Assembly: GCF_029338235.1 (NCBI RefSeq)
Contig: NZ_CP119785.1
Coordinates: forward strand, 1,054,001-1,118,000
DNA: 64,000 bases
Source of the DNA: Haloarcula rara
Lineage (GTDB): Archaea; Halobacteriota; Halobacteria; Halobacteriales; Haloarculaceae
Direction of reading: 5' to 3'
In this document: in pieces, positions 3,222 through 45,905 of the stretch
Layout of the letters: each line of letters opens with the position of its first letter
Position numbering within the stretch: the first letter of the stretch is position 1
The notes under the pieces: generated by a model
The model's input: the letters and a program-made list of their open reading frames with translations, nothing else
What the model was told of the DNA's origin: nothing
Databases searched by the model: none
Position numbers and translations under genes: made by a program

Positions 3222-3461
3222 ATGCGAACCGAACAAGTCTGCGAAGATAAGGGCTCCAGTGAGTTCCCAGCGGTCGGGAACGGCGTTTGCGGTACTGTCG
3301 CACGGTCGAGCGGCTTCGAACCGTTTAAGGCCGCGACTGTGGAACTGTCGACAACTCGCTGGACGACGGGCACCAGCGGGCACCTGCGTGTGCAGGTCGG
3401 GATGTGAGTCGCTGACGCTACAGAGGCGACTTGAACCACGCAACGCCCGTGGTGAAACACA

Positions 3462-18124: not shown

Positions 18125-19516
18125 TTAGACCAGTGGGTCGAAAATACCGCCGTCACCGAAGCCACCACCATCGTCACTGTTGCCGTCGTCACTGCTATCC
18201 GATTTTCCGCCGTCGTCACTGCTATCCGATTTTCCGCCGTCGTCACTGCTATCCGATTTTCCGCCGTCGTCACTGCTATCCGATTTTCCGCTGTCGTCAC
18301 TGCTATCCGATTTTCCGCTGTCGTCACTGCTATCCGATTTTCCGCTGTCGTCACTGCTATCCGATTTTCCGCTGTCGTCACTGCTATCCGATTTTCCGCT
18401 GTCGTCACTGCTATCCGATTTTCCGTCGCCAAGGCCGGGGAGAGCCGAGTCTCCACCAAGGCCGGGGAGAGCCGAGTCTCCGCCAAATCCGGGGAGATCC
18501 GAGTCTCCACCAAGGCCGGGGAGAGCCGAGTCTCCGCCAAATCCGGGGAGATCCGAGTCTCCACCAAATCCGGGGGCGTCCGGCTCCTCCACTGCGTTCC
18601 CCTCATCGTTAATAAACATATCCGTCCGATGTTTCTCGTCAACGTTGTCGGCCCCATCTTCAATTGTATATCCGCTGCCCGGTCTCTCTTTCACGCTCGG
18701 CGCGTCGGTGTCGATAGCAGTGAGCTGACCGTCGATATAGGTCTTGACCTTGCCGTCGTTGTCTCCATCGGCGATTATCTTCTCCCCGTTCTCGAGAGTG
18801 TATCGCATATCAGCACCGCACCCTTGGTTGGGACATTCGGGGTCGTAGCTGCCAGTGCCAATGACGCCATCACCACCACCAACACTCCCAACCGAAACCC
18901 GATGCGTCGCGCTGCCGCGATTTCCGAGCGTGTCGTAGGCCACGGCGCGGACGGACGGTGTCCCGGTCTCGTCGAAGGAGTGCGTGAACGAGCGGTTCGC
19001 CGCCGAGCCGTTCAACGAGTCCCGCTCGACGACGCTGCCGTTGACCAACCACGTCAGCGTCTGGAGTGACGCTTCCTCGGCCGAGACGTTCGCGGTGAAC
19101 GTCGCATTGCTACCCGACGCCGTCGCGGTCGGACCGGAAACCGAAACGTCGGGCCCGCTCTCGTTAGTCGTGGTGACATAGAGCGTATCCGAGCGGGTCG
19201 CGCCGTCGTCGTCGGTGACGGTTAGTGTCACCGTGTACTGGCCCAGCGCAGTGGCGTCGAACTCCGTCCGGTTGCAGTTTTCACAGTCCGGCGATATCGT
19301 CCCGCCACTGGGTGTCTCGATAGTCCAGGAGACGTTCGTAATCTCACCGTCGGGGTCCCGCGAGGCGGTCCCGTCCAGGTACACCGTCGAGTTGACCGGG
19401 ACCGTCTGGTCGACGCCCGCTTCGGGCATCGGTGCGGTGTTGTCCGCCGCAGCGGCGATACCACTCGTCGAGAACAGTACGACAGCCGCGAGCAGCAGGA
19501 GGGCTCCGACGCGCAT
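18125..19516 (-). CDS. PKD-domain surface protein with 9-residue repeat tail
   Basis: 463 aa. Signal peptide 1-24 (MRVGALLLLAAVVLFSTSGI AAAA). Residues about 28-118 are a PKD domain (AGVDQTVPVNSTVYLDGTAS, ITNVSWTIETPSGG, YTVTLTVTDDDGA), 122-210 a second Ig-like domain, 211-310 a linker, 315-364 five and a half PG(F/L)GGDS(A/D)L repeats, 366-446 nine KSDSSDD(S/G)G repeats, and an end GGGFGDGGIFDPLV. No transmembrane anchor or PGF-CTERM tail follows, so it may be released or held by another protein. A TATA (TTTATAAAAT, 19541-19550) lies about 29 nt before the ATG. An extracellular adhesive or matrix role is inferred. Confidence 0.85.
   Translation of the reverse strand: MRVGALLLLAAVVLFSTSGIAAAADNTAPMPEAGVDQTVPVNSTVYLDGTASRDPDGEITNVSWTIETPSGGTISPDCENCNRTEFDATALGQYTVTLTVTDDDGATRSDTLYVTTTNESGPDVSVSGPTATASGSNATFTANVSAEEASLQTLTWLVNGSVVERDSLNGSAANRSFTHSFDETGTPSVRAVAYDTLGNRGSATHRVSVGSVGGGDGVIGTGSYDPECPNQGCGADMRYTLENGEKIIADGDNDGKVKTYIDGQLTAIDTDAPSVKERPGSGYTIEDGADNVDEKHRTDMFINDEGNAVEEPDAPGFGGDSDLPGFGGDSALPGLGGDSDLPGFGGDSALPGLGGDSALPGLGDGKSDSSDDSGKSDSSDDSGKSDSSDDSGKSDSSDDSGKSDSSDDSGKSDSSDDGGKSDSSDDGGKSDSSDDGGKSDSSDDGNSDDGGGFGDGGIFDPLV
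18179..18421. repeat. 27-bp tandem repeats, nine units (KSDSSDD repeats)
   Basis: Nine in-frame 27-bp units encode KSDSSDD(S/G)G. Adjacent units are nearly identical at DNA level, differing mainly at one base that changes Ser to Gly, so the array has expanded recently and copy number is likely to vary between strains. Confidence 0.95.
18425..18574. repeat. 27-bp tandem repeats, about 5.5 units (PGxGGDS repeats)
   Basis: A second in-frame 27-bp array just upstream in the coding sense encodes PGFGGDSDL or PGLGGDSAL. Its period is the same as the adjacent array, but the sequence is unrelated. Higher-order alternation of the F/D and L/A versions suggests duplication of two-unit blocks. Confidence 0.92.
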
Positions 19517-43495: not shown

Positions 43496-43691
43496 ACAGC
43501 CAGAAAGCCCCGTGAGCGATTGCTGCATAGTAGACCGCAAACAGCCAGAAAGCCCCGTGAGCGATTGCTGCATAGTAGACCGCAAACAGCCAGAAAGCCC
43601 CGTGAGCGATTGCTGCATAGTAGACCGCAAACAGCCAGAAAGCCCCGTGAGCGATTGCTGCATAGTAGACCGCAAACAGCCAGAAAGCCCC
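43496..43691. repeat. 45-bp tandem repeat array
   Basis: Four complete 45-bp units start at 43496, 43541, 43586 and 43631, followed by the first 16 bases at 43676-43691. The units appear identical. Each begins ACAGCCAGAAAGCCCCG, containing the 14-bp terminal repeat of the adjoining element A, followed by about 28 bp (GTGAGCGATTGCTGCATAGT...) of other sequence. The array is therefore built from a terminal repeat plus flank duplicated head to tail. Confidence 0.95.
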
Positions 43692-43996
43692 GACTGGCTC
43701 CGGTCGGGGGCCTCGCTGCGCTCCTCAGTCGCTTCGCTCCTTGCGGTGCTTGCGTCGTCCACCTTCCCGGAGCCAGTCGCCCCTTTCAGTCCCGCCCGTA
43801 GCCGGTTGACCAGCCGACTTGGGTGGGACTGAAAGGGGCCGCGCTCTCGACGAAGCACGGCGTTCGCAAGAGCGAAGCTCTTGCGCAGCCCATCAGAAAT
43901 CTTCGATTTCTGAGGACGAAGTAAGCACTGGAGCGAACGAAGTGAGCGAAGCGCGCAACGAGCCGCGCGAGTCGAGAGCGCGGGGGCTTTCTGGCT
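43678..43996. repeat. Inverted-repeat element copy A (MITE-like, 319 bp)
   Basis: Perfect 14-bp terminal inverted repeats (AGCCAGAAAGCCCC at 43678-43691; its complement at 43983-43996). The arms are imperfectly palindromic: CCCCTTTCAGTCCCGCC near 43780 pairs with GGTGGGACTGAAAGGGG near 43822-43838. The right arm holds two more hairpins with AAGAGC-GAA-GCTCTT and CAGAAATC/GATTTCTG. No coding frame. A second, longer copy is 1.8 kb away. A core of about 32 bp starting GTGGGACTGAAAGGGGCCGC is almost identical in both. Confidence 0.85.
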
Positions 43997-44102
43997 CTCC
44001 CGCACCGCTGCAGTAGCGTTCACAAAAGCAGGTCCATCGTTTCCTAGCCGCAATTTGGGTCGATTGCACACTGCTTTTGACGACCCAACCCTACGTGCGA
44101 CT

Positions 44103-44789
44103 GTGGCGTCCCCATACGAGATACTCGGCGTCGACCCCGACGCGGACGAGGCCGAGATAGTCGATGCCTATCGGGAGCGCGTCAAGGAGACCCACCCCGA
44201 CCAGGGCGGGTCGACGGAGGCGTTTCTGGCGGTGAAGACCGCCTTCGAACGCATCGAGAACGGCTGGGAGCCCGGGGACGCAGTTCCGGAGGACGACATC
44301 GCCGGCGACCCGGACGCGGGGACCGACGCTGCCGATGGGACGACTGAGCCCGAACAGCCCCCGGAGCCGGAGGGCGTCAAGGTGGAGTACCTGAACTACG
44401 AGGTGATGGCCGACCGGCTGTGGGAGCTGACCGACGACGACCTCTTCGAGAAGGCGGCCGATGGCGGCCTCGCGCCCGAGGATTACGGCGAGTTCTACGT
44501 CAGAGACAGCGAGTCGCTGCTTGAGGCCGCCGAACGCCAGGGGTACGCCTGGCCCTTCGCCTGTCGCGGGGGCGCCTGTACGAACTGCGCCGTCGCCGTC
44601 GTCGAGGGGGAGATGCCATCGCCGTCGAGTCACATTCTGCCGAAGGAACTCCACGACCGCGGGATTCGTCTCTCCTGTATCGTCGCGCCCGAGACGGACG
44701 CGAAAATCGTCTACAACGTGAAGCATCTGCCCGCGGTGCAGGACCTCCTGCTGCCGGCGAGCCGGTTCGAGGCGTCGTCGACGGACTGA
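44103..44789 (+). CDS. J-domain/[2Fe-2S] ferredoxin fusion protein
   Basis: 228 aa. Residues 2-52 are a DnaJ J domain (SPYEILGVDPDADEAEIVDAYRERVKETHPDQGG, read in segments, HPD at 31-33). An acidic linker runs 55-90, and residues 92-220 are the haloarchaeal plant-type ferredoxin with Cys154, Cys159, Cys162 and Cys192 (CRGGACTNC...LSC). The usual haloarchaeal acidic insertion (about 100-130, MADRLWELTDDDLFEKAADG) precedes the cluster loop. The start is a GTG with a TTTTGA about 27 nt upstream. The J domain could recruit DnaK to cluster assembly, which is inferred. Confidence 0.9.
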   Translation: MASPYEILGVDPDADEAEIVDAYRERVKETHPDQGGSTEAFLAVKTAFERIENGWEPGDAVPEDDIAGDPDAGTDAADGTTEPEQPPEPEGVKVEYLNYEVMADRLWELTDDDLFEKAADGGLAPEDYGEFYVRDSESLLEAAERQGYAWPFACRGGACTNCAVAVVEGEMPSPSSHILPKELHDRGIRLSCIVAPETDAKIVYNVKHLPAVQDLLLPASRFEASSTD

Positions 44790-44831
44790 GCGGCCGCTGT
44801 CGGGGACAGCGCCGATAAAATCCTAAGACGG

Positions 44832-45098
44832 CTACGCCGAGGCCTGCGTCAGCGCGTCCTCGATGTCGTCGGCCTGCGTGACGCCGACGAAGCGCTCGAC
44901 GATGCCGTCGTCGTTCTCGACGACGAGCGTCGGGAGCGAGCGGACCTGGTACTCGTTGGCCACGTCCTGTTCCTCGTCGACGTTGATCTTCTCGAACTCG
45001 ACGTCGCCCCACTCTTCCTCGAGATCTTCGAGGATGGGGTCTTGCGTCTTGCAGGGGCCGCACCAATCGGCGTAGAAGTCCTTGAGCGTGACAGCCAT
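44832..45098 (-). CDS. Thioredoxin-family protein
   Basis: 88 aa. Thioredoxin fold with the redox-active WCGPC (Cys13 and Cys16) and cis-Pro in RSLPTLVV. The N-terminal helix-strand of classical thioredoxin is missing: the protein starts almost at the beta strand before the active site, typical of short archaeal glutaredoxin-like thioredoxins. A TATA-like CCTTATCTG lies about 33 nt upstream. It is divergent from the Sec61-beta gene. Confidence 0.92.
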   Translation of the reverse strand: MAVTLKDFYADWCGPCKTQDPILEDLEEEWGDVEFEKINVDEEQDVANEYQVRSLPTLVVENDDGIVERFVGVTQADDIEDALTQASA

Positions 45099-45202
45099 GG
45101 TTCTTCTCAGCCTAGACTGTGGTATCAGATAAGGATTGTCCATACGGGTACGGCGCGAGCGAAGCCGAAAGGCTTACTCGGGATGGGTGATGAGAAGCGC
45201 CC

Positions 45203-45373
45203 ATGAGCAGCGACAGCGGCGGACTGATGTCCAGTGCCGGCCTCGTCCGGTACTTCGACGCCGAAGACCAGAACACCATCCGCATCGACCCGCGAACCAT
45301 CGTCGCCTTCGGCGTCCTCTTTGGCGCGCTCGTGCTGATTCTGAACGCGATGCTTCAGACTGGCGGGCTGTAG
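45203..45373 (+). CDS. Preprotein translocase Sec61-beta subunit
   Basis: 56 aa. [20 protein letters not shown] leads to a conserved cytosolic segment ([20 protein letters not shown]) and a single C-terminal helix ([16 protein letters not shown]) anchoring it beside SecYE. It is the archaeal SecG-equivalent. The gene is very short but has the family's complete length and order of features. The promoter would be near AGGCTTACT at 45170. Element B lies just downstream. Confidence 0.92.
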
Positions 45374-45435
45374 AAGGAGACGCTTTTTTCGCCGATACGA
45401 GCTGTTTTACTGGTGACTCAGTGAGGACTGCCGAG

Positions 45436-45815
45436 AGCCAGAAAGCCCCGGTTCGCTTCGGTCGAGGGCTTCGCTGCGCGTGGTTCGAGAGAGCAAATCT
45501 CTCTCGTCATCTGCTCACGGGTCGGAGGCCCGTTCGCAGGTTCGTGGGACTCTGCGAGTCCCACGCTCATCACGAAAGGCGCCACGCGCCTTTCGAACGA
45601 CTTCGCTCACTCCGTTCGGTCCAGTGCTTGTGTCAGCCGTCTTCCCGGAGCGAACCGCCTCTTTCGGTCCCACCCCGGCGCTGTTTAACCAACCGGCACG
45701 GGTGGGACTGAAAGGGGCCGCACTCTCGACGAAGCCCGGCGACGCAAGCACCGCAAGCCAGCGGCTGAGGAGCGCAGCGAGCCGCGCGAGTCGAGAGCGT
45801 GGGGGCTTTCTGGCT
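45436..45815. repeat. Inverted-repeat element copy B (MITE-like, 380 bp)
   Basis: Same 14-bp terminal repeats as copy A (45436-45449 and complement at 45802-45815) and the same core (GTGGGACTGAAAGGGGCCGC at 45702-45721, then ACTCTCGACGAAGC). The left arm is longer and holds extra hairpins: GAGAGA/TCTCTC near 45488, GTGGGACT-CTGCG-AGTCCCAC near 45543-45563, and CGAAAGGCGC-CAC-GCGCCTTTCG near 45575-45597. No coding frame. It fills most of the 532-nt gap between Sec61-beta and the next gene. Confidence 0.85.
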
Positions 45816-45905
45816 GTTTACAACCGGTCGAACGCCAGCGGTAACGACCCCGACTGACCACACGAACTCCACGTGGCTTAATTTATCACACGACAATTGG
45901 CAGGT

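What the first reader, a model, noticed from the sequence alone, without database searches (positions are those of the whole stretch)
43678..45815. Two copies of an inverted-repeat element with identical 14-bp ends
Copies A (43678-43996) and B (45436-45815) both begin AGCCAGAAAGCCCC and end in its exact complement. Inside, both carry an almost identical 32-bp core around GTGGGACTGAAAGGGG and complementary arms that make each a large imperfect cruciform, but the outer arms differ by inserted hairpins. They are non-coding, intergenic, and bracket three unrelated genes. No target duplication is obvious. They look like a MITE or a structured repeat moved in trans, but no matching transposase is visible.
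Basis: seen in the sequence. Interest (0 to 1): 0.75.

Follow-up and report, generated by a model that had tools for sequence, protein, structure and literature searches.

The report
IS6-driven cloverleaf palindrome family in Haloarcula
The two repeats belong to a large family of short jumping DNA pieces in salt-loving archaea that fold like a clover leaf, are probably moved by the enzyme of a known transposon family (IS6) that they do not encode, and seem to rewrite their hairpin arms while keeping them self-complementary.

Summary
The 14-bp end (T = AGCCAGAAAGCCCC) occurs 155 times (<=1 mismatch; reversed control 3) in this 3.28-Mb Haloarcula-type genome; I listed 61 convergent T...T' elements, the commonest size class 255-273 bp. 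The canonical element is an outer stem (T/T'), two side arms of inverted layout and a conserved core hairpin. Copy A also has four 45-bp tandem units on its left.

The family is mobile. In a relative (G384 = MAG QS_6_64_34) 32 of 40 copies have IS6-type tips on both sides, 34 nt from T at 63 of 64 ends, and 24 of 32 show 8-bp target duplications (shuffled 3%). Other genomes hold an autonomous ~697-bp element with the same tips and a 211-aa IS6-family transposase (192 bits, cut-off 125). So this is a MITE-like family, probably moved in trans by IS6.

The window copies have no recognisable IS6 tips. Site A is occupied in four relatives and site B in two to three, but stems at site A share only 1-8 of 11 bases.

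Side-arm base stems covary heavily with almost no G-T pairs (423 Watson-Crick, 2 G-T, 5 mismatches), suggesting maintenance as DNA.

Unexplained: triplet-phased flanking tails ending in CTAG.

The parts
43498..43677 (+). Tandem array: four identical 45-bp units, each the 14-bp terminus T plus a 31-nt spacer, ending at copy A
43678..43691 (+). Copy A, left terminus T (outer stem, 5' side)
43692..43778 (+). Copy A, left side arm (hairpin with variable base stem)
43779..43839 (+). Copy A, core hairpin GCCCCTTTCAGTCCC...GGGACTGAAAGGGGC
43840..43982 (+). Copy A, right side arm with inserted hairpins
43983..43996 (-). Copy A, right terminus T'
43997..44047 (+). Copy A, right 'tail', ending in phase-locked CTAG (44044-44047)
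45436..45449 (+). Copy B, left terminus T
45450..45656 (+). Copy B, left side arm with inserted hairpins
45657..45718 (+). Copy B, core hairpin
45719..45801 (+). Copy B, right side arm
45802..45815 (-). Copy B, right terminus T'
45816..45857 (+). Copy B, right tail up to the first in-frame stop (TGA); no CTAG within 80 nt

Best explanation
The two elements are old members of a family of non-autonomous, palindromic (fold-back) transposable elements of Haloarcula and relatives. Shown for the family: IS6-type tips, 8-bp target duplications, an autonomous ~697-bp IS6-family element with the same tips in other genomes, and a conserved three-armed fold. Inferred: IS6 transposase moves the elements in trans; the T stem, side arms and core are kept as DNA inverted repeats and their stems are rewritten in place by replication template switching and exchange between copies; the tandem arrays outside T arise by slippage or unequal recombination. 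The window copies were inserted before the split of several related species and have since lost, or never had, recognisable IS6 tips.
For: 155 T hits against 3 in the reversed control; core 66 against 0; 61 convergent pairs. G384: tips 34 nt outside T at 63 of 64 ends, 24 of 32 two-tipped copies with >=6/8 target duplication, 17 perfect, shuffled 3.2%. G000: element 1966846 absent at the orthologous place in G301, G363 and G395; target duplications 8/8 at 2044325 and 7/8 at 2769071. Autonomous IS: eight copies of 695-698 bp, tips such as GGTAGTGTTTAGTTTGG and GGCGGTGTTTAGTTAAGC, perfect 8-bp duplications in L586, L591 and L593; the 211-aa ORF of L591 scores 192 bits for NCBIfam IS6, cut-off 125; 8 of the 12 plasmid rows shown are annotated IS6. 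Structure on 18 elements: 97.2% of 1488 cells paired, 239 cells with double changes against 70 in shuffles, slid controls 36-46% paired. Base stems 423 WC, 2 GT, 5 mismatches. Without alignment, on every element of >=150 bp without N: 88 of 102 arm ends here and 72 of 100 elsewhere have a partner pairing at >=10 of 12 bases, with 1023 + 825 WC, 6 + 9 GT, 27 + 30 mismatches (the partner is chosen as the best-scoring window). Site A: stems share 1-8 of 11 bases between five genomes whose neighbouring genes are about 85-94% identical.
Against: Only 3 of 61 G000 elements have both IS6 tips and 3 have one; the window copies have none. The tip pattern is barely above its control in G000 (5 + 3 against 3 + 1) and G301 (8 + 6 against 3 + 4). 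No IS6 transposase domain was found in G000 or G301 and only one with a stop in G384, although that Pfam model scores a good copy at only 27.6 bits. Five of the eight ~697-bp IS copies lack a perfect duplication, as do 15 of 32 two-tipped G384 elements, 8 of them below 6/8. Most G000 ends have tails that IS6 does not explain. One of five covariation measures, further pair types, does not clearly exceed shuffles (80 against 74.9; 53 of 500 reach it). Inner arm stems do hold G-T pairs: 30 cells, 17 of them one constant pair. Arm inversion, also expected from template switching, was seen in only 2 right arms of 50 elements scored. T occurs in bacteria too, as chance hits.
Confidence: 0.72

Rival explanations
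1. A structured non-coding RNA or RNA regulatory family: the cloverleaf is selected as a transcript and the copies are dispersed RNA genes or leaders.
For: Very strong covariation and folding energy; some G-U in the inner arm stems.
Against: No Rfam match at these places at gathering score. Base stems change among all four Watson-Crick pairs with almost no G-U (2 of 430 cells; 15 of 1920 cells), unlike the usual course of RNA evolution (recalled). The layout is palindromic, so both strands look alike. Arms are lost or enlarged and stem sequences are not conserved at site A.
Confidence: 0.1
2. Two mobilities: IS6 moves only the recent tipped copies, while the older CTAG-bounded copies, including those in the window, were placed by another system that targets CTAG or stop codons.
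For: CTAG 72 in 9394 positions within 80 nt of T against 16 in 24034 positions further out; 21 elements have CTAG on both sides; 61 of 67 first CTAGs in one phase.
Against: No autonomous CTAG-ended element was found in the loci scanned; no longer duplication next to CTAG (best 8-mer score within the shuffled range); some elements have one IS6 end and one other end. Copy B has no CTAG within 80 nt on either side.
Confidence: 0.2
3. REP/BIME-like palindromes mobilised by a Y1 (HUH) transposase, or IS605-derived palindrome elements (PATEs).
For: Palindromic, largely intergenic, high copy; frames that look like an IS200/IS605 element lie next to one site in G301 (by eye).
Against: Terminal inverted repeats and 8-bp target duplications, neither expected of HUH elements; PATEs lack both (PMC3119063, passages).
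Confidence: 0.05
4. Local duplication of an intergenic sequence.
For: Two copies 1.4 kb apart.
Against: Genome-wide family and presence of T in 56 of 392 genomes.
Confidence: 0.01

Closest known systems
MITEs of haloarchaea (e.g. those of Haloquadratum walsbyi, PMC3119063, passages seen)
   Same: Short, non-coding, terminal inverted repeats matching a separate transposon only at the tips, target duplications, moved in trans.
   Different: Three-armed palindrome with covarying variable stems, a 14-bp T stem 34 nt inside the tips, external tandem arrays and triplet-phased tails; parent family is IS6.
IS6-family insertion sequences of Halobacteria (PMC7986276, passages seen)
   Same: GG tips and short inverted repeats; archaeal members given as 700-750 long for two clades; 8-bp duplication (measured here; recalled for the family).
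   Different: The element encodes no transposase and, compared by eye, resembles the IS only at about 17 tip bases.
REP/BIME and REPIN elements (search listings and abstract starts only; otherwise recalled)
   Same: Dispersed palindromes of high copy number.
   Different: About ten times longer, target duplications, DDE rather than HUH partner.
Fold-back transposons such as Galileo of Drosophila (PMC3573991, search listing and start of abstract only)
   Same: Long, internally structured inverted repeats; variable internal length.
   Different: Prokaryotic, about 260 bp, IS6 partner, base-pair covariation between arms.
Inverted-repeat arm homogenisation by template switching (PMC8604942, abstract read)
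   Same: A known process that makes the arms of inverted repeats match and can invert spacers.
   Different: Here proposed as the ongoing editor of a transposon family; not tested directly.

Membership tests
MITE | Terminal inverted repeats related to a known transposon | tested here: met
   IS6-type tips GGYRGTGTTTAGTT at both ends of 32 of 40 G384 copies but only 3 of 61 G000 copies; autonomous IS with same tips. Not met for the two window copies themselves.
MITE | Target-site duplication of the parent's length | tested here: met
   24 of 32 G384 copies >=6/8, 17 perfect; parent IS 8 bp, perfect in 3 of 8 copies. Window copies: none seen.
MITE | Too short to encode a transposase | tested here: met
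   61 elements, 28-697 bp; no conserved frame across the arms
MITE | Polymorphic insertion between relatives | tested here: met
   Element 1966846 absent in G301, G363, G395; element 1640257 absent in G395 and G295, remnant in G363
IS6-dependent element | Partner transposase belongs to IS6 | tested here: met
   NF033587 192.4 bits, cut-off 125
IS6-dependent element | Transposase present in this genome | tested here: inconclusive
   No PF13610 match in G000, but the model is weak for this subfamily
IS6-dependent element | Transposase actually mobilises the element | not testable with these tools
   needs an experiment
REP/BIME | Short palindrome with GTAG/CGTC-type tag and linked RAYT | tested here: not met
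   Element length and ends; duplications. RAYT linkage not searched.
PATE (IS605-derived) | No terminal inverted repeat, no target duplication | tested here: not met
   Both present in recent copies
Rfam structured RNA | Match to a curated family | tested here: not met
   At gathering score the window has only an eL15 leader elsewhere; weaker matches not searched
CRISPR array (for the 45-bp tandem array) | Identical repeats with different spacers | tested here: not met
   Spacers within an array are identical or nearly so

The most novel reading that the evidence does not exclude
A transposon family whose cloverleaf DNA is continuously re-templated in the cell, so that each copy has its own private, almost perfectly paired stems, and whose flanks are held in a triplet register (every third base mostly a pyrimidine, in-frame stops avoided up to a final TAG in CTAG, tandem unit lengths multiples of three). 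This would mean that the ends are read by a triplet-stepping machine, most simply a ribosome translating out of a start-less structured transcript, or another process not yet described.
Probability: 0.15. Interest if true: 0.85.

Novelty: new variant of a known kind. Interest (0 to 1): 0.58.

Why it matters
It gives a repeat that occupies dozens of intergenic places in some Haloarcula genomes an identity, a likely mobiliser (IS6) and a testable anatomy. Near absence of G-T pairs in base stems beside heavy covariation may be a natural record of DNA hairpin re-templating in archaea. It also warns that strong covariation need not mean an RNA. The triplet-phased tails are a replicated oddity that asks for an experiment.

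Tried and rejected
CRISPR-like array: spacers inside an array do not differ. Local duplication: rejected. Known RNA family: none at gathering score. Protein family in the flanks: translations share no conserved sequence or start codon that I could see and orthologous tails differ freely by eye, so a conserved peptide is rejected although the phase signal is real. Idea that the tails are the end of the IS6 transposase gene: compared by eye, the frame does not agree when tips are aligned; not adopted. Autonomous carrier of the CTAG-type ends: long frames through T' scanned in the fetched loci L084-L430, nothing consistent by eye. IS5-like frames next to an IS6-like tip in G301 (L376): unrelated. 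Phages: no match to copy A. Plasmids: parts of copy A in 22 records, none covering 80%; tip-plus-T queries of 60 and 49 nt: none. Alignment of all 25 candidates was spread out to 496 columns by inserted hairpins in three off-type elements, so I used the alignment-free check instead of folding it. Literature: sequence strings of T and core not found in the held papers (9 papers, hits only to the 11-mer GGGACTGAAAG and unrelated by title); topic searches listed no description of this family that I recognised from titles and abstract starts; many subscription papers are not held, so priority is not proven. A third paper was searched for passages only and not used (PMC12306157).

Full report
Observation. 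Copy A is also preceded by four identical 45-bp units (T plus a 31-nt spacer). T occurs 80 + 75 times (<=1 mismatch) in the 3,282,213-bp genome against 0 + 3 for the reversed pattern; the core GGGACTGAAAGGGG 37 + 29 times against 0. In 69 merged stretches around these hits, paired termini face each other; I listed 61 innermost convergent pairs (termini with up to 2 mismatches), 28-697 bp, the commonest class 255-273 bp. Single termini without a partner also occur.

Anatomy. A canonical element is T (14), left arm (about 88), core hairpin (about 60), right arm (about 88, the inverted layout of the left), T' (14). Consensus folding of 18 elements (of 25 candidates) gives 83 pairs; 97.2% of 1488 cells pair, 42 pairs have double changes (31 in shuffles), and 239 cells with double changes compare with 70 in shuffles; a fifth measure, further pair types, is reached by 53 of 500 shuffles; sliding the partners by 1-3 columns drops pairing to 36-46%. 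T and core hardly vary; the base stems of both arms vary at nearly every pair, often among all four Watson-Crick types. In these two stems I count 423 Watson-Crick, 2 G-T and 5 mismatched cells; inner arm stems hold 30 G-T cells, 17 of them one constant pair. An alignment-free check on 51 of 61 elements here and 50 of 75 elsewhere found a partner pairing at >=10 of 12 bases for 88 of 102 and 72 of 100 arm ends, with 1848 Watson-Crick, 15 G-T and 57 mismatched positions. RNA evolution normally passes through G-U (recalled), so I infer maintenance at the DNA level; template switching between inverted-repeat arms is known to homogenise them (PMC8604942, abstract). Among 108 arm ends there are 86 different 11-mers, and none of 45 elements of >=200 bp has the same stem on both sides.

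Mobility. Just outside T, 94 of 122 ends here begin with G (mostly GTN) and 23 with C (mostly CTC). Some ends read, by eye, CTCAGNNNCAATCGCTGCTAAACTAAACACYRCC and stop there. The inward form GTGTTTAGTTTAGC (<=2 mismatches) occurs 66 + 63 times in G384 (control 3 + 0), but only 5 + 3 in G000 (control 3 + 1) and 8 + 6 in G301 (control 3 + 4). There 32 of 40 elements have such tips on both sides, 34 nt from T at 63 of 64 ends, with target duplications of >=6/8 in 24 (17 perfect) against 3.2% in shuffled pairs. A 17-nt tip pattern (<=1 mismatch) was found in 36 of 372 genomes; of 32 tip hits in the 30 loci taken, 8 have T within 80 nt and 24 do not. Eight of these bound a 695-698-bp element, most with a 211-aa frame and three with perfect 8-bp duplications. 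The frame of L591 is an IS6-family transposase by NCBIfam (192 bits, cut-off 125) and barely by Pfam (27.6 bits); 179 plasmid records hold relatives and 8 of the 12 rows shown are annotated IS6. In this genome three elements have both tips (duplications 8/8, 7/8, and one that matches only after a shift of one base) and three have one. Element 1966846 is absent from the orthologous place in G301, G363 and G395, and 1640257 from G395 and G295.

The window copies. Site A is occupied in G301, G363, G395 and G396; site B in G396, reduced in G363, a remnant in G301, and empty in G395. Five more distant relatives have 44-92 bp at site A and a sixth (G397) holds a different insert. While neighbouring genes are about 85-94% identical, the base stems at site A share 1 to 8 of 11 bases, arms are missing (G363, G396) or inverted (G395). 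So place is stable and content is rewritten. Neither window copy shows an IS6 tip.

Distribution and context. Exact T occurs in 56 of 392 genomes of the order, 19 of 95 genera; highest in G384 (73 + 74), G000 (61 + 57) and G301 (60 + 56), then G322 (20 + 18) and G041 (16 + 20). Of 60 elements with a gene called on both sides by a simple frame finder, 20 lie between divergent genes, 33 between co-directional and 7 between convergent genes; no genome-wide baseline was computed.

Unexplained. The tails from T' outward are phase-locked. CTAG is enriched within 80 nt (72 in 9394 against 16 in 24034 positions); the first CTAG is in one phase in 61 of 67 ends here and 27 of 38 in other genomes (binomial p 7e-23 and 2e-6, which ignores relatedness). 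In 63 segments here every third base is a pyrimidine in 77%, against 50% after CTAG; stops in that frame are 4 of 893 codons, against 17 expected from phase composition and 36 from shuffling. In other genomes the same frame has 14 stops in 555 codons, the other two frames 23 and 45, so the stop avoidance is weaker there. Array intervals run from 33 to 67 bp, 39 of 40 multiples of three. No conserved peptide or start codon was seen. In 9 of 29 ends that have CTAG and face a converging gene the CTAG is that gene's stop codon, so part of the enrichment may come from host genes. I have no satisfying explanation; decay from coding 3' ends, a second mobility targeting CTAG, and translation of a start-less structured transcript all remain open.

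Verdict. A MITE-like family of an unusual fold-back kind with IS6 as the likely mobiliser: a new variant of a known kind.

Noticed in passing
window 18185-18575: Two adjacent tandem arrays of 27-bp (and 54-bp) units, 8.9 and 5.4 copies.
   Followed up: no
window 3383-3442: Rfam eL15-Euryarchaeota ribosomal protein leader, 38.8 bits.
   Followed up: no
L115 1609-1877 (G397, site A): The orthologous site holds a different inverted-repeat insert with ends GAGCCTGTCCGAAAAA, suggesting a hot spot for small mobile elements.
   Followed up: no
L118, L122, L123 between the DnaJ-ferredoxin and thioredoxin genes: Relatives carry about 210-320 bp of other palindrome-rich sequence where the window has 42 bp; it shares the motif GTGAGCGCGTTTYATCGCGCGAA.
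   Followed up: no
window 43857-43918 and related plasmid places: Small hairpin modules nested in copy A's right arm match places on plasmids of many haloarchaeal genera (22 plasmid records for all of copy A), as if hairpins were separate modules.
   Followed up: partly
L376 (G301:C7): A broken IS5-like element beside what reads by eye like the end of an orc1/cdc6 gene (not searched), whose end abuts an IS6-like tip.
   Followed up: partly
L343 (G301:C2:384300-388500): Frames that look by eye like IS200/IS605 TnpA and TnpB, and a 451-aa repeat protein, stand near the place where G000 has element 1640257.
   Followed up: no
L390-L429 (G384): Several contigs of this MAG begin or end near T and some elements contain runs of N, so the family seems to break short-read assemblies.
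   Followed up: no
L587 (G143:C1, another genus of the family): A 416-bp element with T, IS6-type tips and a perfect 8-bp duplication (TCCTCGAT), i.e. the tipped form also moved outside Haloarcula.
   Followed up: partly
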